64,000 nucleotides of DNA, taken from the NCBI RefSeq assembly GCF_002160985.1, contig NZ_NFLQ01000005.1, positions 124,001 through 188,000 of the forward strand, in the 5' to 3' direction. Within the stretch, counting starts at the first letter, position 1. Each line of letters starts with the position of its first letter. The stretch is from Lachnoclostridium sp. An118. Lineage in GTDB: Bacteria; Bacillota; Clostridia; Lachnospirales; Lachnospiraceae. The notes beneath the pieces are model-generated. The model was given only the letters and a program-made list of their open reading frames with translations. It made no database searches and was not told where the DNA came from. A program made the translations under genes and the position numbers. This document shows, piece after piece, positions 34,995 to 46,987 of this stretch.

Positions 34995-35030
34995 TTATGT
35001 ATCATTTTCCAGCTATCCTTTCCGGTCTCT

Positions 35031-36164
35031 CTATCCCTTCAGCCTCTCGGTGAAATCAGCCATTGCCTCTGAGATCTTGATCTGCTGGGGACAGACTGCC
35101 TCGCAGCTCCTGCAGCCGATGCAGGCGGAAGGTCTCTTGTCCTCCGGGAGCGTCGACACCACCATGGGCGCGATAAATCCGCCGCCTGTGAAGCAGTGCT
35201 CGTTGTAGAGCTCCAGGATCCTCGGGATATCCAGCTCTTGGGGACAGTGGCTCACGCAGTAGTGGCAGGCTGTACACGGAAGGACGATCTTCTTCACCAT
35301 GTCGTCGGCAATGCCAAGAAGGGTATCCATCTCCTCTTTATTCAGCGGCTTATCCTCCTCAAAGGTGGCGATATTCTCTATCAGCTGCTGTGCGTTTGAC
35401 ATGCCGGACAGAGTCACCTTCACCTCAGGCATGCTCTGCAGGAACCGGAACGCCCATGCCGGGATGCTCTCCTCCGGGCGGAGCGCCTCCAGCTTCTTTG
35501 CGGCCTCCTCGTTTATCTTTGCGAGGGAACCGCCGCGCAGCGGCTCCATCACCCACACAGGGATGTCATACTCCTTCAGGAGCTCCATCTTGCCCTTTGC
35601 GTCCTGGAATGTCCAGTCCAGATAGTTGAGCTGGATCTGGCAGAATTCCATGTCTTTTCCGTACTTCTCAAGGAAACGCTTCATCACGTCGTAGTTTCCG
35701 TGGGCGGAAAATCCCAGATGGCGGATACGTCCGTTTTTCTTCTGCTCCATGAGATATTTGTGGATGCCGTGGGACTCATCCAGGTAAGCGTCTATGTTCA
35801 TCTCGCACACATTGTGGAAAAGGTAGAAATCAAAATACTCTGTCTGGCACTTCTTCAGCTGCTCCTCAAAGATTTCCTCCACCTTGTCCATGTTGGAGAG
35901 GTCGTAGCCCGGGAATTTATCAGCCAGGTAAAAGCTCTCCCTTGGGTATTTGGAGAGAACGCGGCCCATCACCAGCTCGGAGGTGCCGTTGTGGTATCCC
36001 CAGGCAGTATCGTAATAGTTTACGCCGTGGTCCATGGCATACTGTACCATATCGGCTGTGGCGGCCTCGTCTACCTTCGCGTCATCGCCGTCAATGACCG
36101 GCAGGCGCATGCAGCCCATGCCCAGGGCAGACAGCTTTAAATCTTTGTAATCTCTGTAGATCAT
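35031..36164 (-). CDS. aldo/keto reductase with two C-terminal [4Fe-4S] clusters
   Basis: A 377-residue NADPH-type oxidoreductase. AKR catalytic residues: Asp and Tyr in YYDTAWGYHNG, Lys in LADKFPGY, His in FYLFHNV. After the (beta/alpha)8 core comes a ferredoxin-like domain with CTACHYCVSHCP (about 300) and CIGCRSCEAVCP (about 350). Electron transfer to an anaerobic substrate is likely. Single-gene operon ending at the terminator at 34963. Confidence 0.92.
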   Translation of the reverse strand: MIYRDYKDLKLSALGMGCMRLPVIDGDDAKVDEAATADMVQYAMDHGVNYYDTAWGYHNGTSELVMGRVLSKYPRESFYLADKFPGYDLSNMDKVEEIFEEQLKKCQTEYFDFYLFHNVCEMNIDAYLDESHGIHKYLMEQKKNGRIRHLGFSAHGNYDVMKRFLEKYGKDMEFCQIQLNYLDWTFQDAKGKMELLKEYDIPVWVMEPLRGGSLAKINEEAAKKLEALRPEESIPAWAFRFLQSMPEVKVTLSGMSNAQQLIENIATFEEDKPLNKEEMDTLLGIADDMVKKIVLPCTACHYCVSHCPQELDIPRILELYNEHCFTGGGFIAPMVVSTLPEDKRPSACIGCRSCEAVCPQQIKISEAMADFTERLKG

Positions 36165-36205
36165 CTTTGTCCACTCTCCTTCTCTTCATTTCAGTCATCC
36201 TGTAT

Positions 36206-36248
36206 AAAAAGTATCAGGGAACTATATTTTATTATAATTCCCCGATAC
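36206..36248 (-). terminator. Rho-independent terminator after htpG
   Basis: On the minus strand GTATCGGGGAA pairs with TTCCCTGATAC (one G-U) over a 16-base AT-rich loop, followed by TTTTTAT. It lies 55 bp after the htpG stop. Confidence 0.65.
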
Positions 36249-36302
36249 GAGAACCGCAAATACTTAAATAAAATACCCGGTCATACTTATTTTCTATACT
36301 TT

Positions 36303-38363
36303 TTATTTTGTCAGCAGCAGCATGATCTCGTTGCTCCTCTGTACAAAGGCTGTCATCTCCTCCGGTGTCAGAGGCTTGTGTGCCAGCATGGCCATGTCGT
36401 AGAGCTGTCTGCAGATGACAGGTGTGTTCTCATTGTCTCCGTGCTCTGCCACAAACTGTACAAGAGGATGGTTGGCGTTCAGCGTCAGTGTGATCTCGCC
36501 GCCAAACATGGATGCATCCATGCCTGCCATGCCGTACATTCTCATCATCTCCTGCATACGGCGGCTCTGCTCGGACAGGGTGATCATGGAAGCCACCTTG
36601 TCGTCTTTCAGTTTCTCCACTTTCACGTCCAGCTTGTCATTTTCCATAACTTTGCGGAATGTCTCCACAAGAGCGTCCGTTGTCTTCTGGAAAGCCTCTT
36701 TGTCTTCTTCTTTCACTTCCTCTTTTGCACTGTCCGTAATGTCCGCATCAATGCGCTGGAACTGCAGGTTCGGATTTCTCTGCTCAAGCTGGGTGATGAA
36801 CGGAGAGTCGATGTTGTGATTCAGGATCACCGCATCCTGCCCCTGGTTTTTAAACATGTTAATGTACTGGCTCTGCTGCTGCTCGTCAGATACATAGTAG
36901 ATGGTGGTCTTGGGCTCTTCCTTCTTCTCCTCGCCCTCCTTTGGCTCCTCTTTTTCCTCCTTGGGGTCGATGAGCTTACCGCCGTTTGCCTCCACGCACT
37001 CTTTCAGCGTCATGTATTTGTGATCCAGGTTCTTGAAGAGGATGTAGTCCATCATCTTGTCGCAGAATTTCTCGTCCTTCAGGCAGCCGAACTTGATGAA
37101 GGGGCTGATGTCATCCCAGTATTTCTCGTAGTTCTCCTTGTCGGTCTTGCACATGCCGCTCAGCTTGTCGGCAACCTTCTTGGAAATGTAGTCTGCGATC
37201 TTGTTTACAAATCCATCGTTCTGGAGCGCGCTTCTTGATACGTTCAGCGGCAAATCCGGACAGTCGATGACTCCCTTTAACACCATCAGGAACTCCGGAA
37301 TGACTTCCTTGATGTTGTCCGCGATGAACACCTGGTTGTTGTACAGCTTGATGGTTCCCTCGATGGAGTCGTACTCTGTGTTGATCTTGGGGAAGTACAG
37401 GATACCCTTCAGGTTGAACGGGTAATCCATATTCAGGTGGATCCAGAACAGAGGCTCCTTGTAGTCCAGGAATACCTTCCGGTAAAACTCTATATAATCT
37501 TCCTTTGTGCACTCATTTGGATGCTTTGTCCACAGAGGCTGGGTGTCGTTGACCGGAACAGGACGCTTGTTGATCTTCACCCTGTCTCTGGCAGGAGATA
37601 CTTCCACCATCTCCTTCTCCCCGTTCTCGTTCTCCTTCTCCTCCATCTTTGCATCCTCGTGGATGTGCTCTACGACCACATCGTCGTCCCGAAGGTCCGC
37701 CTCATCGATGGTCTCATACTCCTGCTCTGCATTGGCCTTCTCAAGGAAGATCTCCACCGGCATAAAGGAGCAGTACTTCTCCAGCACTTCACGCACTTTG
37801 TACTCGTTGGCAAACTGGAGGCTGTCCTCATTTAAGAACAGGGTGATCTCCGTCCCCACTTCCTGCCGGTCTCCGTCGGACATCTCATACTCTGTGCCGC
37901 CGTCGCTTGTCCAGTGCACAGGAGCTGCCCCCTCCTGGTAGGAAAGTGTGTCGATGTGTACTTCGTCCGCCACCATGAAAGCGGAGTAGAAGCCAAGACC
38001 GAAGTGACCGATCATGTCATCCTCTGTCGTCTTGTCCTTGTATTTCTCCAGGAACTCTGTGGCTCCGGAGAAAGCGATCTGGGTGATGTACTCCTCCACC
38101 TCGCCGGCCGTCATACCCACACCGTTGTCGATGAATTTCAGTGTCTTGTCCTCCGGGCTGACGATCACACGGATCCGGGCCTTGTAGTCATCCGGAAGCT
38201 GATACTCTCCCATCATGTCCAGCTTTTTCAGCTTGGTGATAGCGTCGCATCCGTTGGAGATCATCTCACGGACAAAGATATCGTGGTCTGAATAGACCCA
38301 TTTCTTGATAATAGGAAAAATATTTTCGCTGCTGATAGACAGACTTCCTTTTTTTGCTGCCAT
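36303..38363 (-). CDS. htpG: molecular chaperone HtpG (Hsp90)
   Basis: A 686-residue Hsp90. N-terminal GHKL ATPase motifs: ISNGCDAITK, IDNGVGMTAGE and IGHFGLGFYSAF. The middle domain and C-terminal dimerisation domain follow; the acidic KEEPKEGEEKKEEPKT linker lies near residue 465. ATP-driven folding of client proteins. The promoter and perfect CIRCE lie at 38427-38489, so it should be HrcA-controlled. Confidence 0.95.
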   Translation of the reverse strand: MAAKKGSLSISSENIFPIIKKWVYSDHDIFVREMISNGCDAITKLKKLDMMGEYQLPDDYKARIRVIVSPEDKTLKFIDNGVGMTAGEVEEYITQIAFSGATEFLEKYKDKTTEDDMIGHFGLGFYSAFMVADEVHIDTLSYQEGAAPVHWTSDGGTEYEMSDGDRQEVGTEITLFLNEDSLQFANEYKVREVLEKYCSFMPVEIFLEKANAEQEYETIDEADLRDDDVVVEHIHEDAKMEEKENENGEKEMVEVSPARDRVKINKRPVPVNDTQPLWTKHPNECTKEDYIEFYRKVFLDYKEPLFWIHLNMDYPFNLKGILYFPKINTEYDSIEGTIKLYNNQVFIADNIKEVIPEFLMVLKGVIDCPDLPLNVSRSALQNDGFVNKIADYISKKVADKLSGMCKTDKENYEKYWDDISPFIKFGCLKDEKFCDKMMDYILFKNLDHKYMTLKECVEANGGKLIDPKEEKEEPKEGEEKKEEPKTTIYYVSDEQQQSQYINMFKNQGQDAVILNHNIDSPFITQLEQRNPNLQFQRIDADITDSAKEEVKEEDKEAFQKTTDALVETFRKVMENDKLDVKVEKLKDDKVASMITLSEQSRRMQEMMRMYGMAGMDASMFGGEITLTLNANHPLVQFVAEHGDNENTPVICRQLYDMAMLAHKPLTPEEMTAFVQRSNEIMLLLTK

Positions 38364-38426
38364 TTATATCACTCCTTAAATCTCAATCTGTTTTGTGCGG
38401 GATCTGACCCGCACCCTCTGCATGTT

Positions 38427-38455
38427 ATGATAATACCCGGGAGCGCAAATGTCAA
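38427..38455 (-). promoter_or_regulatory. htpG promoter
   Basis: Minus-strand TTGACA (38450-38455), exact, and TATCAT (38427-38432) with a 17-bp spacer. 64 bp upstream of the start codon. Confidence 0.7.
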
Positions 38456-38462
38456 TATAAAA

Positions 38463-38489
38463 TTAGCACTCATCGCAAATGAGTGCTAA
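38463..38489. promoter_or_regulatory. perfect CIRCE operator upstream of htpG
   Basis: TTAGCACTC-ATCGCAAAT-GAGTGCTAA, both arms exact and spacer 9. It is 7 bp upstream of the htpG -35, and no other start codon is nearby. Confidence 0.9.
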
Positions 38490-38536
38490 TAACTTTATAA
38501 AATCCATAAACCTTCTATAAACTTTGCTTTTCATGT

Positions 38537-41500
38537 CTACTCCACGCTCTTCAGAGACTCTACCATGTCTATCTTCTTCAGCTTGAAGTACATGACCCAG
38601 TTGACGAACATGGAAAAGCCGAGCGTGAACAGGAAACTGTACAGATAGCTGGTAAGATCCAGCACCCTGCCGAACATGACGTCGTCCACCTCCACAGTGA
38701 CAATGACAAACTGCAGCAGCACCCAGCCAAGGGCCATGCCCGCCACCGCGCCAATGAGGGTGAGCAGGACATTTTCCCTGTACACATAGGCAGCCACCTC
38801 CGTGTCGTAAAAGCCCAGCACCTTGATGGTTGCCAGCTCCCTCTTTCTCTCCGTGATGTTGATGGTGTTCAGGTTGTAGAGAACGATAAAGGCCAGCATG
38901 CCCGCCGAGATGATCAGCACCACAATGACCAGGTTCAGACTCTGCAGCATATCGTCAAGGCGGTCCTCTATACTGGAGGTATAGCTCACGTTCAGCACAT
39001 TGCTGTCTCCAAGTAGCCTGCCGCCCACTGCCTCGATCTGGTCTGTCTGCCCCTCTTTCATCTTAAACAGCACGCCGTTGGAGGCGGCCTCTTTCCCGAA
39101 CAGCTCCCTGTAGTAGTCCGGCGAGAGGTACAGGTAGTGTCCCATATAATTCTCGCAGATGGCGTCTATGGTCACTTCCTTCACACCCATGCCGTCGTCC
39201 TCCAGAGTGACTGTATCTCCCACCTCCACGCCAAGGTCGCTTGCCGCCTTCTCGGTCAGGATCACCTGCTCCTTCTCCAGGGAGTAGGTCTCCGGCTTTG
39301 TCCGGCTGTGGAAATCCAGGAAATCGCCTACGTTTTCCAGATTTTCAGGCACTGTCAGATAGATTTCCATGGAAGTATCTCCCGCTGTCACTTCCAGGTT
39401 CTGCATGCGCACCATCAGCTCCCCGCTGACTGCTGACTCATCCCTGAAAAGGGCCGCTATCTCCTCCTTGTCCTCCCGGGAAATCCCCGCGTCAAAGTAC
39501 ACCGCCGCATCGTAGGTCTGGATGCTGTTGTACTGCAGCTCCGGTATGACAAAGATACAGTCCTTCAGTCCGAAGCCCACCACCATCAGGGCCATACAGC
39601 CTCCGATGCCAAACACAGTCATGAAGAAACGCTTCTTGTACCGCACCAGATTCCGGATAGAAGATTTCCAGGAAAAATTCAGATGCTTCCATATGATCTT
39701 CACCCGCTCCAGAAGGATGCGCTGCCCCTGCTTCGGTGCAGGCGGCCGCATGAGCTGGGCCGGCACGGAGGCAAGCTCCCTGTAGCAGGAGAAAATGGTT
39801 GCCGCCAGGGTGCACAGCACGGCGATCAGCGTGGCCTGCACGGCATAGCTCAGGTGATAGGGCATGAGGATGTCCGGTATGTGCTGATACATGATCTTGT
39901 ACGCATAGATGATGATCCAGGGGAACACCTTCTCACCGAACAGGACGCCCAGCACGCTCCCTCCCAGGGTGGCTGTCAGAGCGTAGGCTATGTATTTCCC
40001 GGCAATGGAGAGCTTGCTGTATCCAAGGGCCTTCAGCGTGCCGATCTGTATCCTCTGCTCCTCCACCATCCTGGTCATGGCAGTCAGGCTGATGAGAGCC
40101 GCCACCAGGAAGAAGACTGCCGGGAACACCTGCCCGATAGCCCGCATCCGGTCCGCATTGTCCCCGTACCCGTCATACTCGATGAGGGCGCTGCCGCGGT
40201 CCTGGACATACCACTGAGGATTTTCAATCTTGTCGATTTCCGCCTGGGCCTCCGCAATATCATTTTGCGCCTCCTCCAGCTGCCTCTCGCCGTCGGCGAT
40301 CTGCGCCTCCCCGTCAGCGATCTCCTGAGCCGCCTGGGCAGCTCCCTGCTCGTATTCCGACCAGCCGGAGGCAATCTCCTGCTCTCCCGCCGCCAGGTCC
40401 GCCTTTCCGCTGGCGAGCTGGCTTTCCTGACTGTTTATGAGAGCCCACGCCGCGTCGATCTGGGCCTGTCCGGCGTCAATCTGCTGTTTGGAGTCCTCCA
40501 GTGTCTGACGGGCGGCGGCCAGCTGCGCCTTGCCGTCCTCGATCTGCTGCCCGTAGGCGAGGAGCTCCTGCTCTCCGGCCAGGAGGGTCTGCTCCCGGGC
40601 GAGGAGTTCCTGCATTTTCCCCTGCAGCCCGGCCACTGCCTCCTCCGCACTCTCGTAGGAAAAATCCTCTCCCTGTTCTGCGAGGGCGTCAAGGGCCTCT
40701 TCTTCCGCGGCCTCGGCGTATGTAATGCTCTGTGTCTTCTCAGTCTCCTGCGCTTGGAGCTTCTTGGCCTCCTCAGGCCAGTCCTCTAAAAACTGCTTCT
40801 GCTCCTCCGTTCTCTCGCTGTCTGAGATAGCGCTGTATTCCTCATACTTTTTATTTCCCTCTGTCAGAGCATTGTTTATTTCCGCAAGCTCCTCCCTAAG
40901 AGAAGAAAGATGATCCGCCAGCGTCTCCATCTGGGAAATGGACGTTGTCAACAGCTCCTTCCCCGCCGCAATTTCCTGTTTTCCCTGCTCTATGAGGGGC
41001 ATCTGCTGGGCATACTGGGCAAGGTACTGCACCTCCGACGCGTCCAGCTGCGCCTGCTGCTGTTCCAGCTGGGCCATACCGCTCTCATACTGCTCCCTGC
41101 CGCTGTCCAGCGCCGCCTGCTGGGTGCTCAGCTCCTCCTTGCCCGCGGCAAGCTGGGCCTCCCCATCGGCGATCTGCTGCCGGGCCGCGTCCAATTGGGC
41201 CTGGGCGTCCTCCAGGGCCTGCCTGGCATCGGCAAGCTCCCGGGCAGCCTGGCTCCGCCCCTCCTCGAGCTCACTCCGGGCGTCAGCCAGCGTCTGGCTC
41301 TCCTCGTCCACTGTGGCCTGGGCATCGGCAAGCTCCCCCTCCGCCTCGTCCACGATCTCCTGCCGCCGGGCCTGGCACCTCTCATCCTCAATCTTCTCCA
41401 GGGCGTCCACGGCCGCGTCTGTCAGAGAGGTATATCCGTCCGTGTAGGCGATCTCCTGCTCCGCGTCCGTCACCCGCACGCAGATTTCCGAATAGACATC

Positions 41501-42121
41501 CATACAGAAAGAGTCCGGATCCACAGCGATAAAGCCGCTGACCTCACCGTTTCCTATGGTGCTGCTTCCCCTCCCGAAGGAAATATAGAGAGGGCTGTTC
41601 CCTATGCCGACGACCTCAAAGACATCCGTTGTCAGGCTGTCCTCCAGCGGGTCCTCATCTCCTGAAGACAGAGTGATGGTATCCCCCACTCCGTACCCGG
41701 ATGCCAGGGCGAACTCCTCATCCATGAGGCACTCCCCCTCTTTCTCCGGAAGGCGGCCCTCGCTCACCTGGACATCATTAAAGTGTTCCTGCATGGCCAT
41801 GACATGGACCACCTGCTCCGTGTCGCCTGTATTGCAAAGGGCGTCCATGCTGTAGGTACCCTCCGCCAGCTCGATACCGTCCACATCCTCTATGGCCTCC
41901 ACATCCTCCTCCGTCAGCCCCATGGTCCCCATGACCTTGATGTCCATGAGATGCTCTTTGTCAAAATAGGCATCCCCGGAGATGCGCATGGAAGGCTCCG
42001 AGGCGCGGATGCCCGCATAGAAGGCAACTCCAAGCGCCACTATGAGAAAGATGGAGATAAATCGTCCCCAGGATTTTCTGATTTCCATAAAGAAATCCTT
42101 GCGCAACATGTTTTTCTTCAT
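38537..42121 (-). CDS. MacB/FtsX-type ABC transporter permease with long coiled coil
   Basis: A 1194-residue permease. Helix at about 18-38, a MacB-type periplasmic-like core, then a very long heptad-rich coiled coil (about 255-640, rich in Ala/Gln/Glu). FtsX domain 1 follows with three helices (about 690-830) and a second half with FtsX domain 2 (1065-1194). It is paired with the ATPase at 42129-42833. Such large clostridial permeases export peptides or lipids or act on the envelope by mechanotransmission; substrate unknown. Only the ATPase is needed from its own operon. Confidence 0.87.
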   Translation of the reverse strand: MKKNMLRKDFFMEIRKSWGRFISIFLIVALGVAFYAGIRASEPSMRISGDAYFDKEHLMDIKVMGTMGLTEEDVEAIEDVDGIELAEGTYSMDALCNTGDTEQVVHVMAMQEHFNDVQVSEGRLPEKEGECLMDEEFALASGYGVGDTITLSSGDEDPLEDSLTTDVFEVVGIGNSPLYISFGRGSSTIGNGEVSGFIAVDPDSFCMDVYSEICVRVTDAEQEIAYTDGYTSLTDAAVDALEKIEDERCQARRQEIVDEAEGELADAQATVDEESQTLADARSELEEGRSQAARELADARQALEDAQAQLDAARQQIADGEAQLAAGKEELSTQQAALDSGREQYESGMAQLEQQQAQLDASEVQYLAQYAQQMPLIEQGKQEIAAGKELLTTSISQMETLADHLSSLREELAEINNALTEGNKKYEEYSAISDSERTEEQKQFLEDWPEEAKKLQAQETEKTQSITYAEAAEEEALDALAEQGEDFSYESAEEAVAGLQGKMQELLAREQTLLAGEQELLAYGQQIEDGKAQLAAARQTLEDSKQQIDAGQAQIDAAWALINSQESQLASGKADLAAGEQEIASGWSEYEQGAAQAAQEIADGEAQIADGERQLEEAQNDIAEAQAEIDKIENPQWYVQDRGSALIEYDGYGDNADRMRAIGQVFPAVFFLVAALISLTAMTRMVEEQRIQIGTLKALGYSKLSIAGKYIAYALTATLGGSVLGVLFGEKVFPWIIIYAYKIMYQHIPDILMPYHLSYAVQATLIAVLCTLAATIFSCYRELASVPAQLMRPPAPKQGQRILLERVKIIWKHLNFSWKSSIRNLVRYKKRFFMTVFGIGGCMALMVVGFGLKDCIFVIPELQYNSIQTYDAAVYFDAGISREDKEEIAALFRDESAVSGELMVRMQNLEVTAGDTSMEIYLTVPENLENVGDFLDFHSRTKPETYSLEKEQVILTEKAASDLGVEVGDTVTLEDDGMGVKEVTIDAICENYMGHYLYLSPDYYRELFGKEAASNGVLFKMKEGQTDQIEAVGGRLLGDSNVLNVSYTSSIEDRLDDMLQSLNLVIVVLIISAGMLAFIVLYNLNTINITERKRELATIKVLGFYDTEVAAYVYRENVLLTLIGAVAGMALGWVLLQFVIVTVEVDDVMFGRVLDLTSYLYSFLFTLGFSMFVNWVMYFKLKKIDMVESLKSVE

Positions 42122-42128
42122 ACAACCC

Positions 42129-42833
42129 CTACCATTCTATCGTCTCGACCGGCACCGGATGCGGGTTGGTCTCTATGCTCTCCGCCCTGCCGTTCTTGAT
42201 CCTTATGATCCTGTCTGCCATCGGCGCGATGGCGGAATTGTGCGTGATCAGGATCACTGTCATCCCCCTCTGACGACAGGTATCCTGCAGGAGCTTCAGG
42301 ATGGCTTTTCCCGTGTTGTAATCCAGCGCACCCGTAGGCTCGTCGCACAGGAGAAGCTTGGGATTTTTCGCCAGCGCCCGGGCGATGGAGACCCTCTGCT
42401 GCTCTCCTCCCGAGAGCTGGGCCGGGAAGTTATCCAGCCTCTCGCCCAGGCCCACATGCTCCATGACCTCTCTCGCGTCCAGCGGGTCTTTGCAGATCTG
42501 GAGAGCCAGCTCCACATTCTCCAGGGCTGTCAGGTTGGGGATCAGATTGTAGAACTGGAAGACAAATCCTATATCGTCCCTGCGGTATGCAGTCAGCTCC
42601 TTCCCTTTGTACTTCGTGATATCCTGCCCGTCTATCCACACTTCCCCGCTGGTGGCTGTGTCCATCCCCCCCAGGATATTCAGGACCGTCGTCTTTCCTG
42701 CGCCGCTGGGCCCTACCACCACGGCAAACTCCCCTTTTCTGATGTCAAATGTGATGCCGTTCGCCGCCGCGATGTCGATCTCACCCATGTGATAGATTTT
42801 TTTTACATCCCTCAGGGACACGAACTCTGACAT
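42129..42833 (-). CDS. ABC transporter ATP-binding protein, MacB/LolD type
   Basis: A 234-residue ATPase. Walker A is [11 protein letters not shown] (about 41), signature [15 protein letters not shown] (about 141), Walker [15 protein letters not shown]-loop ITHNSAI. The MacB/LolD group is marked by this short form with the TGALD segment. 7 bp separate it from the permease, which it must drive. Confidence 0.93.
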
Positions 42834-42937
42834 ATATGTATCCTCCTAACACAGACCGGCATGTCTCTGCTTATATAGTGCTATTATAACACCTGGAGGG
42901 ACGGATGTACTATCTGAAAAGGGAAGTTTATAAGAAT

Positions 42938-43135
42938 TTATTCCTCTGTCATGCAGCTCGCAATGGCCTCCTCGATATAATCCTTCAGATACTCGTCGAT
43001 TTCCTCCGCTGTATGGAAGGCGCCTTCCACGTCCGGTTCATAGGCGTAGTCCCGGTAAATCCTTGTGTTCCTTCCCGGGTATCTGCGCAGCATGTCCGAG
43101 CGGAACAGTTTGTCGCTGTCTGTGTACTGTTTCAT
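42938..43135 (-). CDS. small acidic protein downstream of the methylase-like gene
   Basis: A 65-residue protein, start ATG 43135 with AAAGGATGG upstream. Soluble, acidic at the C-terminus (TAEEIDEYLKDYIEEAIA). No family recognised. It begins 22 bp after the methylase-like stop on the same strand, so it is probably part of that transcript. Confidence 0.55.
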   Translation of the reverse strand: MKQYTDSDKLFRSDMLRRYPGRNTRIYRDYAYEPDVEGAFHTAEEIDEYLKDYIEEAIASCMTEE

Positions 43136-43156
43136 ATTCATCCATCCTTTCTGCAT

Positions 43157-44566
43157 TTACTGTTTTCCAAGCATCTTCTCCAGCTTTCTGATCTGTGCAG
43201 AGACCTTCTTCTCCATTTGTTTCAGCTCTGCAAGCAGCTTTTCCGCCTCCTCATAGTCCGCCGGGGGCACAGGACTTTCCCGGTAGCGGCCAAAAGACAG
43301 ATCGTACCCGTTGGCCGCCAGCTCTTCCCTGTCTACCAAAAACGACTTGCCGGACCTGTCACGGTCTTCTTCCTGCTCCCGGCAGTGGAACTTCCTGATC
43401 ACAGCCGGAATACCGTTCTCGCCGGCGAGGGTCCTTCTCCCATCCAGGCTCATCCCTACAGCCTCCAGCTCGAAGAACCAGACAAAGTCCGTTCTATCAC
43501 CGGCATCCCTGCACCTGGAAAAGACAAGCAGCGCGGTCCGGATCCCCGTGAAGGGCAAAAAGACACCGGCCGGGAGGCCTATCACAGCCTCCAGCCTGTT
43601 TTCCTCCACGATCTCCTTTCGCAGCGCCCTGTGGGACCGTGAGGATCCTGACAGCACATCCGGGCTCACGAGACAGGCGCACCTTCCTCCCGGCCGCAGC
43701 ATCCGAAGAAAAAGCTCCGGGAAAAGAAGTTCGGTCCTCTTTGACCTGAACCCCTTCTGGAGGTCCGGGGAAACCATATCGTAATCTGTCATACCCCGAA
43801 AAGGCGGCACAGACAGGATCAGGCTGCAGCAGCTCCTGTCTGTATTCTGCTCTGAGAGGCTGTCCAGACAGGAAAGAGAGACAGCCGCAGTGCCGCATCT
43901 GTTTAGATACGCGTTTCCAACACGGGTCAGCACCGGGTCCATATCATAGCCCTTCAGAATGTGAGCCGGCCTTTTCCCTTCCTTTTCACATTGTTCCGCA
44001 GCCGCCAGCAAAAGCTCCGGGATGCGGCAGGCGGGATCGCAGATGCTGTCTTCCGGCCCGGGCCGTGTCAGACCAGTCATCAGCTGAACGACAGGCGCAG
44101 GGACCCGGGCGCAAAGACCGCTTCCTGCACAGAGCTTCTCAAGCAGATATTCAAAGCTCTCTTTGGTGAGTCCTTCCAGCTCGTCCAGCAGCCCCAAAAT
44201 CCTGGCAAGCAGAGCGGGGCCGGCGATTTTGAAGACCGCCCCCCGCATACACGAGGGATCGCGGGACTCCAGAATGCCTTTCATAAACGGGAAGGCCCAG
44301 TCACGCACCGTCCGGTACTGTTCCTCCTCCGGAAACATCCGGAAGACACTCCACCGCAGATGAGCGCCGGGTACACGGCGCCCGCCCGCGCTTATCTCCT
44401 CCGGGAAAATGTCCCTGCACAAAGTCCCGTCAGCCTTTCTTTCCAGATCCCGGATCAGAAGCAGGCAGGCGATCTGGTCCAGCATCTCCATGCCTCTGCC
44501 CAGTCCGCTTCCCTCTAAAAGACGTATCAGGTCATCGAGTTCTTCCATCCTGGTCTTTTCGAGCAT
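43157..44566 (-). CDS. N-6 DNA methylase (HsdM)-like protein with degenerate catalytic motifs
   Basis: A 469-residue relative of type I restriction-modification M subunits. It keeps the N-terminal HsdM-type helices and the RWSVFRMFPEEEQYRTVRD region. But motif I reads DPACRIPELLL instead of DPACGTGGF, so the SAM loop is lost, and motif IV reads SVPPF instead of NPPF/NPPY. The QFxTP-type motif is also changed (CARVP). It is probably a pseudoenzyme. ATG 44566 lies 5 bp after the Fic-like stop with AGAGGTGA upstream. No specificity (HsdS) or endonuclease (HsdR) gene is nearby. Confidence 0.78.
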   Translation of the reverse strand: MLEKTRMEELDDLIRLLEGSGLGRGMEMLDQIACLLLIRDLERKADGTLCRDIFPEEISAGGRRVPGAHLRWSVFRMFPEEEQYRTVRDWAFPFMKGILESRDPSCMRGAVFKIAGPALLARILGLLDELEGLTKESFEYLLEKLCAGSGLCARVPAPVVQLMTGLTRPGPEDSICDPACRIPELLLAAAEQCEKEGKRPAHILKGYDMDPVLTRVGNAYLNRCGTAAVSLSCLDSLSEQNTDRSCCSLILSVPPFRGMTDYDMVSPDLQKGFRSKRTELLFPELFLRMLRPGGRCACLVSPDVLSGSSRSHRALRKEIVEENRLEAVIGLPAGVFLPFTGIRTALLVFSRCRDAGDRTDFVWFFELEAVGMSLDGRRTLAGENGIPAVIRKFHCREQEEDRDRSGKSFLVDREELAANGYDLSFGRYRESPVPPADYEEAEKLLAELKQMEKKVSAQIRKLEKMLGKQ

Positions 44567-44571
44567 TTCTG

Positions 44572-45498
44572 TCACCTCTCTTCGTTCCATTTGTACGACG
44601 TATAGCGTCCGCCGCTGATCTTCAGGATCTCGTTTTGTTCCTGGAGCTCCTTGAGAGCTCTCTGGATCGTGATCTGACTGATGTCCGGACATGCTTCCAT
44701 CAGCTCGGACTTGGTGATGCTGCCGGGATGATTCCTGACAGCCTCACGCACCCTCTCTTTTTTGGATACTCCACTGCAAAGAGGGGCTGTCCTCAGAGAG
44801 AACTCTCTGTATGTCTCCCGCAGCGCGCAGAGGAAGCCTGTCACCGCCCCATGCAGGCTTCCGGGCGATTCCGCCAGCCCCAGAAGGCCCTCTTCCAGGC
44901 ATGTGTAGCTGATCACATGGTGTCCGGAACGATACAGCAGCAGCCGGGCGAGGAGGCAGAAAAGACGCCGGTTCCCTCTCCGAAAGGGGCGGGCGGCCAG
45001 AAAGTCAAAAAGGAATACGGAAGTCAGCAAAAGCGGCTCCGTCCCGCCCGCATTGAGCAAATCCTCATATATCCGGCAGTCCTCCTCTATATCCGACATC
45101 CTCCGGCTGTCCCGCGGCCCCTTTCCCTGTCTCGTAGCCAGCTTTTTCTGGAACTCTGTCAGCAGAGGAAGGCCCATCTGCAGATACCTGTAGTCATTGC
45201 GGATCATCTCAAGCGCATCCCTGTACCCCGCCGCCTCCTTCTCCCCTTCCGTCACAGGGATCGTCTTATTCTGAGCCAGCTTTTTCAGGCGCCCCCTGGA
45301 TACCGCAGCCCCTGACAGCCTGCATGAGGCGTCTATGCTCCTGACCCTGGCATCTGCCTCCAGGTATACAAGGACATCCGCCCCCTCTTTTTCCAGGAAC
45401 GATTGTCTGCCCCTGCACTCATAAATTTCGGTAAGCAGGAGCACGATGTCCGGCGTGAGCAGACTGCGGCACTTTTTTTCATAAGTATCCTTTTCCAC
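44572..45498 (-). CDS. Fic-like protein with inactive active site and C-terminal winged helix
   Basis: A 308-residue protein related to clostridial Fic proteins. The active-site motif HPFxDGNGR is RPFRRGNRR near residue 175, with the catalytic His replaced by Arg and the Asp and a Gly also lost, so AMP transfer is not expected. The flanking FLFDFLAA and LFCLLARLLLYRSGHHV helices are well kept. The C-terminal ~60 residues form a winged helix (ITKSELMEACPDISQITIQR). The methylase-like gene follows by 5 bp. Together they look like a two-gene unit, function unknown. Confidence 0.75.
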   Translation of the reverse strand: MEKDTYEKKCRSLLTPDIVLLLTEIYECRGRQSFLEKEGADVLVYLEADARVRSIDASCRLSGAAVSRGRLKKLAQNKTIPVTEGEKEAAGYRDALEMIRNDYRYLQMGLPLLTEFQKKLATRQGKGPRDSRRMSDIEEDCRIYEDLLNAGGTEPLLLTSVFLFDFLAARPFRRGNRRLFCLLARLLLYRSGHHVISYTCLEEGLLGLAESPGSLHGAVTGFLCALRETYREFSLRTAPLCSGVSKKERVREAVRNHPGSITKSELMEACPDISQITIQRALKELQEQNEILKISGGRYTSYKWNEER

Positions 45499-45569
45499 CT
45501 TCTGTCCCCCCTCTCTACATCCTGATTATATCATCAAATCTGTAACCCAACATGCTCCCGCCCATTTTT

Positions 45570-45601
45570 AATTTAATCATTTTATAAGATTTGATTAAAT
45601 T
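45570..45601. promoter_or_regulatory. 10-bp inverted repeat upstream of the Fic-like gene
   Basis: AATTTAATCA and TGATTAAATT are exact complements, 12 bases apart, AT-rich, 72 bp upstream of the Fic-like start (45498). A TATAAT box lies at about 45533-45538 on the minus strand. A candidate operator for the winged-helix-containing protein it precedes, or the 3' boundary of the NSS gene. Confidence 0.4.
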
Positions 45602-45610
45602 AAAACCCGT

Positions 45611-45644
45611 AAAAAAACAGGGGGGCTGAAGGGGCGGGAGCCCC
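45611..45644 (-). terminator. Rho-independent terminator of the NSS transporter
   Basis: On the minus strand GGGGCT pairs with AGCCCC over an 11-base GC-rich loop, followed by CCTGTTTTTTT. It begins at the gene's stop codon. Confidence 0.6.
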
Positions 45645-46987
45645 TAGCCGATCCCCCCGTTGAGCGCCCCCAGGACAAACACGGCGATGGTGAGAATACA
45701 GAACACATATTTGTAGAGAGGATAATACCATTTTCCGATGGGATGCTTCCTCCCCGTGGACACAGCTTCCTCCACCGCTCTCCTGCCCCATACCCAGGCG
45801 AACATGATTCCTGCAAGCCCGGCTCCCAGAGGGCAGATGTAGATGGACACAAAGTCCATCCACTGGGAGACGATCCCCTGGATACACAGGGAGACTGCCG
45901 CTCCCACCGCCGCAATGACAATGACAGCCTTTGCCCGCCCAAACTTCAGGTTGTCCTGGAGCGTGGCCACCGGCGCCTCATAGAGATTGACAAGGGAAGT
46001 CATCCCGGCAAACAGGGCCGCCAGGAAAAAGATGAACATGACGATCTGCCCTCCGGGCATGTTGGAGAACAGGTGGGGCAGAGAGATGAACATCAGGCCC
46101 GGCCCGCTCTCGGAGAGCACAGCCCCCGTAGTGGCCATGGCGGGAATGATGACCAGGGCCGCCAGCATGGCTGCGCAGGTGTCGCAGATCGCCACCGTGA
46201 TGGCGGAGCTCACCGTGTCCTCCTTGTCCGACAAGTAAGAGCCGTAAATGATGGTCCCGTTGCCCGCCAGAGACAGAGAGAAGAAGGACTGCCCCAGGGC
46301 AAACACATACAGCATGGGGTCCTTAAAGGCCTCCGGCCGGATGGTGAACATCCACCTGTAACCGTCCGCCGCCCCGGGCTGAAGAGCCACGTAGACTGCC
46401 AGACCGATAAAAAGCACGTAAAAGACCGGGATCATGATCTTGTTGGCCTTCTCAATGCCGCTGCTGATGCCCGCCGCCATGATGATAAATGTCACCACAA
46501 GGACAAGGATAAGCCACAGATTATTGCCAAAGGCACTGGCCATCTGTCCGAATACAGCCCCGAATTCGTCCACACTTCCGGGCGCCAGGGCAGAGCCTGT
46601 GACGCTCCCTGTCATATACTTTACGATCCAGCCCACTACTACGGAGTAGCCTATGGCCAGGGCCAGCGCTCCCAGCATGGGGACCGCGCCTATGGCTCGC
46701 CCGAGATTCCGCCTGTTCTCACCTCTTGACGCGCAGGCCGTGCCGAAGGCCTCCACAGGGCCCGAGCGCACGGCCCGCCCAAAGCTCATCTCCCCTACCA
46801 CGCCGGAAAAGCCCAGCAGCACATCAAAGATCAGATATACGACCAGAAAGGAGCCTCCGTAGGCTGCCATCCTGTACGGAAAAAGCCAGATATTCCCCAT
46901 CCCGACCGCTGAGCCGACGCATGCCAGGATAAACCCTGTCTTTGAGTTCCACCAGTCTCTCTTTGCCGCTCTGTCTGTGTTTGTCAT
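45644..46987 (-). CDS. sodium-dependent transporter, NSS/SNF family
   Basis: A 447-residue membrane protein with about 11-12 helices. The sodium/substrate site of TM1 is ACVGSAVGMGNIWLFPY. Conserved FGRAVRSGPVEAF loop and the TM6 SFFSLSLAGNGTIIYGSY follow. Usually imports amino acids or amines with Na+. A possible structured leader is at 47031-47106. Confidence 0.9.
   Translation of the reverse strand: MTNTDRAAKRDWWNSKTGFILACVGSAVGMGNIWLFPYRMAAYGGSFLVVYLIFDVLLGFSGVVGEMSFGRAVRSGPVEAFGTACASRGENRRNLGRAIGAVPMLGALALAIGYSVVVGWIVKYMTGSVTGSALAPGSVDEFGAVFGQMASAFGNNLWLILVLVVTFIIMAAGISSGIEKANKIMIPVFYVLFIGLAVYVALQPGAADGYRWMFTIRPEAFKDPMLYVFALGQSFFSLSLAGNGTIIYGSYLSDKEDTVSSAITVAICDTCAAMLAALVIIPAMATTGAVLSESGPGLMFISLPHLFSNMPGGQIVMFIFFLAALFAGMTSLVNLYEAPVATLQDNLKFGRAKAVIVIAAVGAAVSLCIQGIVSQWMDFVSIYICPLGAGLAGIMFAWVWGRRAVEEAVSTGRKHPIGKWYYPLYKYVFCILTIAVFVLGALNGGIG

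What the first reader, a model, noticed from the sequence alone, without database searches (positions are those of the whole stretch)
42938..45498. Fic-like and methylase-like pseudoenzyme pair, a candidate unknown system
Fic motif HPFxDGNGR is RPFRRGNRR; the methylase motif I is DPACRIPEL and motif IV is SVPPF. Both lose catalytic residues while the surrounding folds are well kept with no stops, frameshifts or gaps. Two adjacent genes degrading only at their active sites suggests selection for a non-catalytic role, such as DNA or nucleotide sensing, with the winged helix as DNA reader. A 65-residue acidic protein follows on the same strand. No HsdS or HsdR is nearby.
Basis: partly seen in the sequence, partly recalled or inferred. 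Interest (0 to 1): 0.66.

Follow-up and report, generated by a model that had tools for sequence, protein, structure and literature searches.

The report
Dead enzyme pair keeping DNA reader
Two neighbouring genes in a gut bacterium descend from a working virus-defence operon; both have lost their enzyme chemistry, yet one seems to have kept its DNA-reading part and the DNA site it probably reads, so they look like worn-down leftovers that may still act as a self-regulating DNA-binding unit.

Summary
Relatives are canonical: a SoFic-like class II Fic (HPFNDGNGR, inhibitory helix, C-terminal winged helix) beside HsdM, in several loci followed by HsdS, an integrase, HsdS' and HsdR. The window kept only Fic and HsdM. 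Erosion is not confined to active sites: Fic keeps 68 of 134 family-invariant columns and HsdM 92 of 176; canonical members keep 89-100%. Both have internal deletions. Still, it is not a simple pseudogene: no stops where neutral decay from a canonical pair predicts about 9-24, and dN/dS is about 0.24 against Claveliimonas monacensis. The winged helix keeps 17 of 18 invariant columns. A perfect 14-bp palindrome upstream matches a half-site (TGAYNNARTT, about 21-22 bp spacing) found before canonical fic genes, also on held-out loci (24 found, 1.6 expected). Best reading: a dead Fic kept as an autoregulatory DNA-binding protein with a non-catalytic HsdM partner. Main rival: a slowly decaying relic. 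The 65-residue ORF is not a conserved part. DNA binding and function are untested.

The parts
44572..45498 (-). Fic-like gene, 308 aa, GTG start; catalytically dead class II (SoFic-type) Fic with C-terminal winged helix
   Evidence: ORF; Pfam Fic 16.5 bits, below the 24-bit cut-off; 32-37% identical over nearly full length to its 16 closest Fic proteins, all with the HPFxDGNGR motif; AF2 pLDDT 85, pTM 0.76, Foldseek best 8uqu
44965..44991 (-). degenerate Fic motif RPFRRGNRR (family HPFNDGNGR)
44575..44793 (-). winged helix (residues 236-308), recognition helix SQITIQRALKEL
   Evidence: 17/18 invariant and 29/35 conserved columns kept, against 69/181 in the rest of the protein; helix listed
43157..44566 (-). 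HsdM-like gene, 469 aa, ATG 5 nt after the fic stop codon; non-catalytic N6-methylase fold
   Evidence: PF02384 E 8.5e-28; PADLOC MTase_I E 1e-79; 43% to the closest canonical HsdM; AF2 pLDDT 66
44012..44038 (-). degenerate motif I DPACRIPEL (family DPACGTSGF)
43799..43813 (-). degenerate motif IV SVPPF (family ANPPF); catalytic Asn replaced by Val
45566..45605 (.). proposed operator: perfect inverted repeat TTTTAATTTAATCA-N12-TGATTAAATTAAAA, half-sites 22 bp apart
   Evidence: the only such site in G000 at up to 3 mismatches; same kind of half-site upstream of canonical fic genes
45525..45533 (-). extended -10 promoter-like element TGATATAAT
   Evidence: read directly from the sequence; identical in C. 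monacensis; not picked up by the consensus scan
42938..43135 (-). 65-aa acidic ORF; not considered part of the system
   Evidence: no other match at E<0.01 in 387 genomes; 121 bp missing in C. monacensis

Best explanation
[quoted passage not shown] The specificity and restriction genes are gone (shown by comparison). In canonical members the Fic protein most likely doubles as a repressor of its own operon by binding TGAYNNARTT half-sites in the promoter (inferred from sequence). In the window the AMPylase and methylase chemistry is lost (inferred from residues), but the winged helix, its palindrome and the open reading frames have been kept (shown). I therefore think the Fic-like protein is retained as an autoregulatory DNA-binding protein (inferred), and the HsdM-like protein is a probably co-translated, non-catalytic partner or passenger (weakest step). 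No regulon beyond its own promoter is apparent.
For: Canonical operon context and intact motifs in relatives. Selective retention of the winged helix: Fisher p 1.3e-6 against the rest of the protein; the 20 canonical controls keep both parts. Half-sites: 57 in 30 fic upstream regions against 2.2 in shuffles; on 24 new loci 24 against 1.6, with 6 of 7 hsdM-linked ones having 3 or more and 1 of 17 unlinked ones having 2 or more. The window has two half-sites 22 bp apart, the spacing usual in canonical arrays. Palindrome arms identical in C. monacensis. Pair dN/dS about 0.24 from the counts, Fisher p 1.8e-5. Zero stops in the pair against means of 9-24, minimum 4, when a canonical pair is mutated at random to 75% or 52% identity. 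Precedent: CccR, a class II Fic with C-terminal HTH that represses its own promoter through a palindrome, its regulatory and toxic activities being independent (PMC9755527, passages).
Against: Half of all family-invariant positions are lost in both proteins. The HsdM-like model is poorly predicted, with pLDDT under 50 at 253-261 (motif IV) and parts of 333-381. The pair is present in 2 of 11 genus genomes and shared through a recent exchange block, so the selection estimate rests on 16 nonsynonymous and 21 synonymous differences; two of the seven Fic-like differences (R251C, K283R) lie in the winged helix, and dN/dS (0.20, 0.31) exceeds that of the flanking genes (0.03-0.12). Mutating the window pair itself at random to 90% identity leaves no stop in 3 of 60 runs, so a recent, short neutral phase is not excluded. 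Only one palindrome in the genome, so no target besides itself. The palindrome also sits inside a larger hairpin that could be a terminator of the preceding gene. Some hsdM-linked canonical fic genes show no half-site under the strict pattern (L011, L017, L041; L140). Helix and site variants agree only loosely and kinship was not corrected for.
Confidence: 0.5

Rival explanations
1. Slowly decaying relic: the operon lost hsdS and hsdR, and the remaining two genes erode without function; intact frames and the palindrome are leftovers of a long functional past and a short neutral present.
For: Half of invariant columns lost and deletions in both proteins; sister species G398 and G399 have the locus empty, G399 with a two-mismatch relic of the palindrome; third ORF cut in the sister; dN/dS raised relative to neighbours; 3 of 60 random runs to 90% identity from the window sequence leave no stop.
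Against: No stops despite a 2.7-3.5 substitutions-per-site branch; a 25% loss of identity gives at least 4 stops from a canonical start and at least 2 from the window's own sequence; dN/dS below 1; the winged helix is spared although the rest of the same protein is not.
Confidence: 0.33
2. Trans-acting silencer of incoming relatives: the dead Fic binds operators of newly arriving Fic-led restriction operons, or dead HsdM poisons their complexes, a kind of immunity against competing restriction systems.
For: The window half-site TGATTAAATT occurs in promoters of canonical relatives (L002, L005, L007; L139); G000 has no second Fic match at E 0.001.
Against: No functional data; G400 was not searched with a Fic query, and two genomes are too few for an exclusion test in any case; HsdM is eroded along its whole length.
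Confidence: 0.07
3. Non-catalytic sensor pair in phage defence, as the first reader proposed (nucleotide or DNA sensing by both pseudoenzymes together).
For: Origin in a defence operon (the canonical relatives of L071 match PADLOC SoFic and MTase_I); gene spacing that suggests co-translation.
Against: Flap, most of the Fic motif and inhibitory helix, and the glycine loop of HsdM motif I are lost; no effector gene of the canonical operon next to the pair; found in 2 of 11 genus genomes.
Confidence: 0.07
4. Ordinary regulator role for the adjacent ABC/FtsX transporter operon that lies downstream on the same strand.
For: Same orientation; 104 bp between the last ORF and the ABC gene.
Against: The ABC gene has its own TATAAT-like element in the gap, also present in the two species without the pair (sequences); no palindrome copy there.
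Confidence: 0.03

Closest known systems
SoFic-type class II Fic proteins (PADLOC SoFic; SoFic structures 3EQX/3ZCN; 8UQU)
   Same: Ancestral family: canonical relative L071 Fic hits PADLOC SoFic at 1.6e-39; the window model matches 8uqu, 4rgl, 3zcn and 3eqx; C-terminal winged helix.
   Different: Catalytic His to Arg, Asp to Arg, second Gly and distal Arg lost, inhibitory helix gone, flap deleted; the window protein matches the SoFic profile only weakly and over the winged helix (5.4e-4).
CccR (Yersinia pseudotuberculosis; PMC9755527, passages read)
   Same: Class II Fic with C-terminal HTH that autorepresses through a palindromic operator; DNA binding is separable from AMPylation. This is how the window protein is proposed to work.
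   Different: CccR is an active AMPylating T6SS effector; the words hsdM, methyltransferase and restriction do not occur in that paper's text; the window protein has no active site.
Type I restriction-modification HsdM (PF02384; PDB 5YBB, 2OKC, 3UFB by sequence)
   Same: N6-methylase profile match and gene order fic-hsdM as in canonical operons.
   Different: Motif I, FRTPRH and the catalytic Asn of NPPF are lost; no HsdS or HsdR.
RptR repressor of a type I restriction-modification island (PMC12255303, passages read)
   Same: First gene of a type I restriction operon represses its own promoter through repeated short sites.
   Different: RptR is a small (about 79-aa) four-helix protein; its site is TAGCTA; the word Fic does not occur in that paper's text.
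AS1, 47-aa antitoxin downstream of E. coli SoFic (PMC12249575, passages read)
   Same: A small ORF downstream of a SoFic-type gene, superficially like the 65-aa ORF here.
   Different: The window ORF follows hsdM rather than fic, has no other match at E<0.01 in 387 genomes and is cut in the sister species.

Membership tests
Class II Fic AMPylase (SoFic) | HPFxx(D/E)GNGRxxR motif with catalytic His | tested here: not met
   RPFRRGNRRLFC in window and in C. monacensis
Class II Fic AMPylase (SoFic) | N-terminal inhibitory helix (S/T)xxxE(G/N) | tested here: not met
   STEASNKIEG in relatives, SIDASCRLSG here
Class II Fic AMPylase (SoFic) | Fic fold plus C-terminal winged helix | tested here: met
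   AF2 pLDDT 85 and Foldseek to Fic structures; winged helix by Pfam at sub-threshold scores and by alignment
Class II Fic AMPylase (SoFic) | AMPylation activity | not testable with these tools
   predicted absent
Type I HsdM | SAM motif I and catalytic NPP(F/Y) | tested here: not met
   DPACRIPEL and SVPPF; 30 of 30 tabulated homologues keep a glycine-containing motif I and NPPF
Type I HsdM | HsdS and HsdR partners in the operon | tested here: not met
   no match in the window above chance; the HsdS matches of G000 lie on another contig, C11
Type I HsdM | N6_Mtase profile match | tested here: met
   PF02384 98 bits against a cut-off of 20.4
CccR-like autoregulatory Fic | C-terminal HTH plus palindromic site at its own promoter | tested here: met
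   sequence level only:
CccR-like autoregulatory Fic | binding and repression shown | not testable with these tools
   needs gel shift and reporter
Neutral pseudogene | stops or frameshifts, dN/dS near 1 | tested here: not met
   zero stops; dN/dS 0.20 and 0.31, from one species pair only; a short recent neutral phase is not excluded

The most novel reading that the evidence does not exclude
A toxin-type AMPylase and its methylase partner have been converted into a self-contained, non-enzymatic DNA-binding pair. The canonical parents form a class of type I restriction operons, not described in the papers I could find, that are repressed by their own SoFic-like Fic through arrays of TGAYNNARTT sites, so that the dead pair could silence incoming members of that class.
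Probability: 0.15. Interest if true: 0.75.

Novelty: new variant of a known kind. Interest (0 to 1): 0.5.

Why it matters
It is a possible case of two enzymes dying together while the regulatory wiring of their operon, DNA-reading domain plus binding site, stays intact. It also points to a simple rule in the living relatives: the Fic protein at the head of certain type I restriction operons probably controls that operon through repeated promoter sites. The discussion of PMC9755527 (passage) says that nearly nothing is known about functions and activity control of class II Fic proteins, and the motif makes one form of control directly testable with gel shifts and reporters in ordinary laboratory strains.

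Tried and rejected
Other degenerate pairs: among the best-scoring, listed matches of 397 family genomes I saw no second degenerate HsdM; motifs were read for the 30 fetched homologues only, not for every weaker match. Two of 11 genus genomes carry the pair. Lone odd Fic genes exist in G053 (RPFERGNGY, L012/L066) and G382 (HPFKDGNGK, L006/L067), but they have other neighbours and no half-sites. A common origin of L012 with the window is unresolved: long branches meet and the join may be an artefact. Viral contigs gave no relative of the HsdM-like protein, and plasmids 13 records with Fic proteins all below 60% identity. A wider regulon was sought with a relaxed palindrome; one site, its own, in each of G000 and G400. 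Insertion of the pair as a mobile element was considered; the relic palindrome in the empty site of G399 argues rather for loss in that species, but the order of events is not proven. An RNA element: no Rfam match at gathering score in the window. Paper searches for Fic operators or Fic in type I operons listed none that I recognised as describing it; I read passages of three papers and saw the others only in search listings; subscription journals and preprints are not covered. My half-site pattern was derived by eye and first counted on partly overlapping loci, so only one search is a hold-out; its loci are new but some Fic proteins there are close kin of earlier ones (for example L134, L135 and L137 of L004). 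The pattern misses variants such as TGACGAGATT in L083. I had first taken 46069 as an edge of the exchange block; that was merely the end of a fetched locus, and one search puts the edges near 35000 and 46500.
Full report
What is there. The finding lies in G000:C44, genus Claveliimonas by inference: a genome of the same genus code, G400, is identical over the 4,410 bases compared to a record titled Claveliimonas monacensis DSM 108991. The Fic-like gene (44572-45498, -) is followed after five bases by the HsdM-like gene (43157-44566, -), whose ribosome-binding-like GAGAGG overlaps the end of fic.

Relatives. In 397 family genomes (G000 included) the Fic-like protein has matches in 121 and the HsdM-like protein in 164 at E 0.001 (these include distant Fic and HsdM families). 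The closest relatives are about 32-43% identical and often adjacent to each other. Of the 20 stretches fetched, five show the full order fic-hsdM-hsdS-integrase-hsdS-hsdR (L068, L069, L071, L072, L084), two show it without fic (L081, L082), and several others show parts of it (families confirmed for representatives). The arrangement suggests specificity switching by recombination (inference). Of 26 Fic relatives aligned, 24 keep an HPFx(D)GNGR motif; L012 and L006 do not. All 30 HsdM rows tabulated keep motifs I and IV.

How worn are they. Against 20 canonical Fic rows the window keeps 68 of 134 invariant columns (50 changed, 16 deleted); against 29 HsdM rows it keeps 92 of 176 (rows dropped beforehand are named in Tried and rejected). 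Canonical rows left out in turn keep 96-100% (Fic) or 89-100% (HsdM). So the loss is general, not local. The Fic branch is 2.7-3.5 changes per site long against a median of 0.13-0.15. G+C content is 57-58% against 37-45% in the six relative genes measured.

What was spared. In the Fic-like protein, the winged helix (236-308) keeps 17 of 18 invariant and 29 of 35 conserved columns; the rest keeps 69 of 181 conserved columns (p 1.3e-6). By stretch, invariant columns kept are 8/11 (1-40), 14/27, 6/18, 18/40 and 5/20 before the winged helix. The 20 canonical controls keep most of both parts. AlphaFold2 gives a confident Fic-plus-winged-helix model (pLDDT 85; Foldseek best match 8uqu, then 4rgl and SoFic structures), whereas the HsdM-like model is weak (pLDDT 66).

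The palindrome. Upstream of the fic-like gene is a perfect 14-bp inverted repeat with a 12-bp spacer. Of 13 canonical fic genes examined, most have an inverted repeat in the same place, in some with longer arms (up to 17). Reduced to a half-site TGA[CT]NNA[AG]TT, 57 occur in the 180 bp before 30 fic genes against 2.2 in shuffles and 0.6 in similar windows of the same loci. On 24 loci not used to derive it, 24 occur against 1.6 expected; six of seven hsdM-linked loci have three or four, one (L140) has none; of 17 unlinked loci one (L141) has two and the rest one or none. In the first set several fic genes without hsdM also have half-sites (for example L003, L004, L009, L020, L025), and some hsdM-linked ones have none under the strict pattern (L011, L017, L041), so the motif seems to follow a branch of the Fic family rather than hsdM itself. 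Half-sites tend to recur every 20-23 bp; the window pair is 22 bp apart. Recognition helices and site variants agree loosely by eye: SRITVERAL goes with TGATGYARTT, and SQ..QR mostly with an A at the sixth position, though with several exceptions (for example sites in L010, L013, L015, L018); the window (SQITIQRAL, TGATTAAATT) fits. Kinship was not controlled.

Selection. Against C. monacensis the HsdM-like gene has 14 synonymous and 9 nonsynonymous differences (dN/dS 0.20) and the Fic-like gene 7 and 7 (0.31); the four flanking genes measured have 0.03-0.12. Together the deficit of nonsynonymous change is significant (Fisher p 1.8e-5; Fic alone 0.031). The two species are 97-99.6% identical from about 35000 to 46500 and about 72-93% on either side, so the shared pair reflects recent exchange, and the selection test covers only that short time. 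For the longer time, random mutation of a canonical pair to 75% or 52% identity leaves on average 9-24 stops, never fewer than 4 in 60 runs per setting; starting from the window's own sequence, 75% identity leaves 8.6 (minimum 2) and 90% leaves 3.5, with none in 3 of 60 runs. The real pair has none. Long neutral decay is thus unlikely; a short recent one is possible.

The empty sites. In G398 and G399 the two flanking genes are adjacent. G399 keeps a copy of the palindrome with two mismatches and a TATAAT element, which suggests it once had the operon here; it carries a Fic-HsdM pair with intact motifs elsewhere (L083), whose Fic is nearly the same as that of L011 (tree distance 0.003). G398 lacks the palindrome.

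Interpretation. The best-supported mechanism is a dead SoFic-type Fic kept as a DNA-binding autoregulator. CccR shows that a class II Fic with a C-terminal HTH can repress its own promoter through a palindrome independently of AMPylation (PMC9755527, passages), and RptR shows that type I restriction operons can be repressed by their first gene (PMC12255303, passages). I have no direct evidence of binding, of repression, or of any role for the HsdM-like protein. A fading relic remains a serious rival, and the palindrome might in part serve as a terminator hairpin of the preceding transporter gene (fold z -4.2), although its recurrence before canonical fic genes argues for an operator.

Verdict. 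It is a new variant of a known kind, moderately interesting, and cheap to test.

Noticed in passing
window about 35000-46500 against L112 (C. monacensis): A block of 97-99.6% identity between two species that are about 72-93% identical on either side, indicating recent homologous exchange that includes htpG, the transporter operon and the dead pair.
   Followed up: partly
L068, L069, L071, L072, L084: SoFic-like fic genes heading type I restriction operons with two hsdS genes and a phage-integrase-family gene between them, suggesting switchable specificity; L081 and L082 have the same order without fic in the fetched stretch.
   Followed up: partly
L066:9599-10498 (+): A lone Fic-like gene with RPFERGNGY and no inhibitory motif, next to a transglutaminase-like gene with DUF4214 repeats; possibly an independent dead Fic.
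   Followed up: partly
L067:9413-10396 (+): A Fic-like gene with HPFKDGNGK lacking the inhibitory helix, between an aldehyde-dehydrogenase-like gene and a gene with a weak metallo-beta-lactamase-fold match.
   Followed up: no
L082:8114-11372 (+): Two hsdM-like genes of one cluster in tandem at the head of a type I operon.
   Followed up: no
window 45554-45641: The palindrome is nested in a larger G+C-rich inverted repeat that folds better than any of 200 shuffles.
   Followed up: partly
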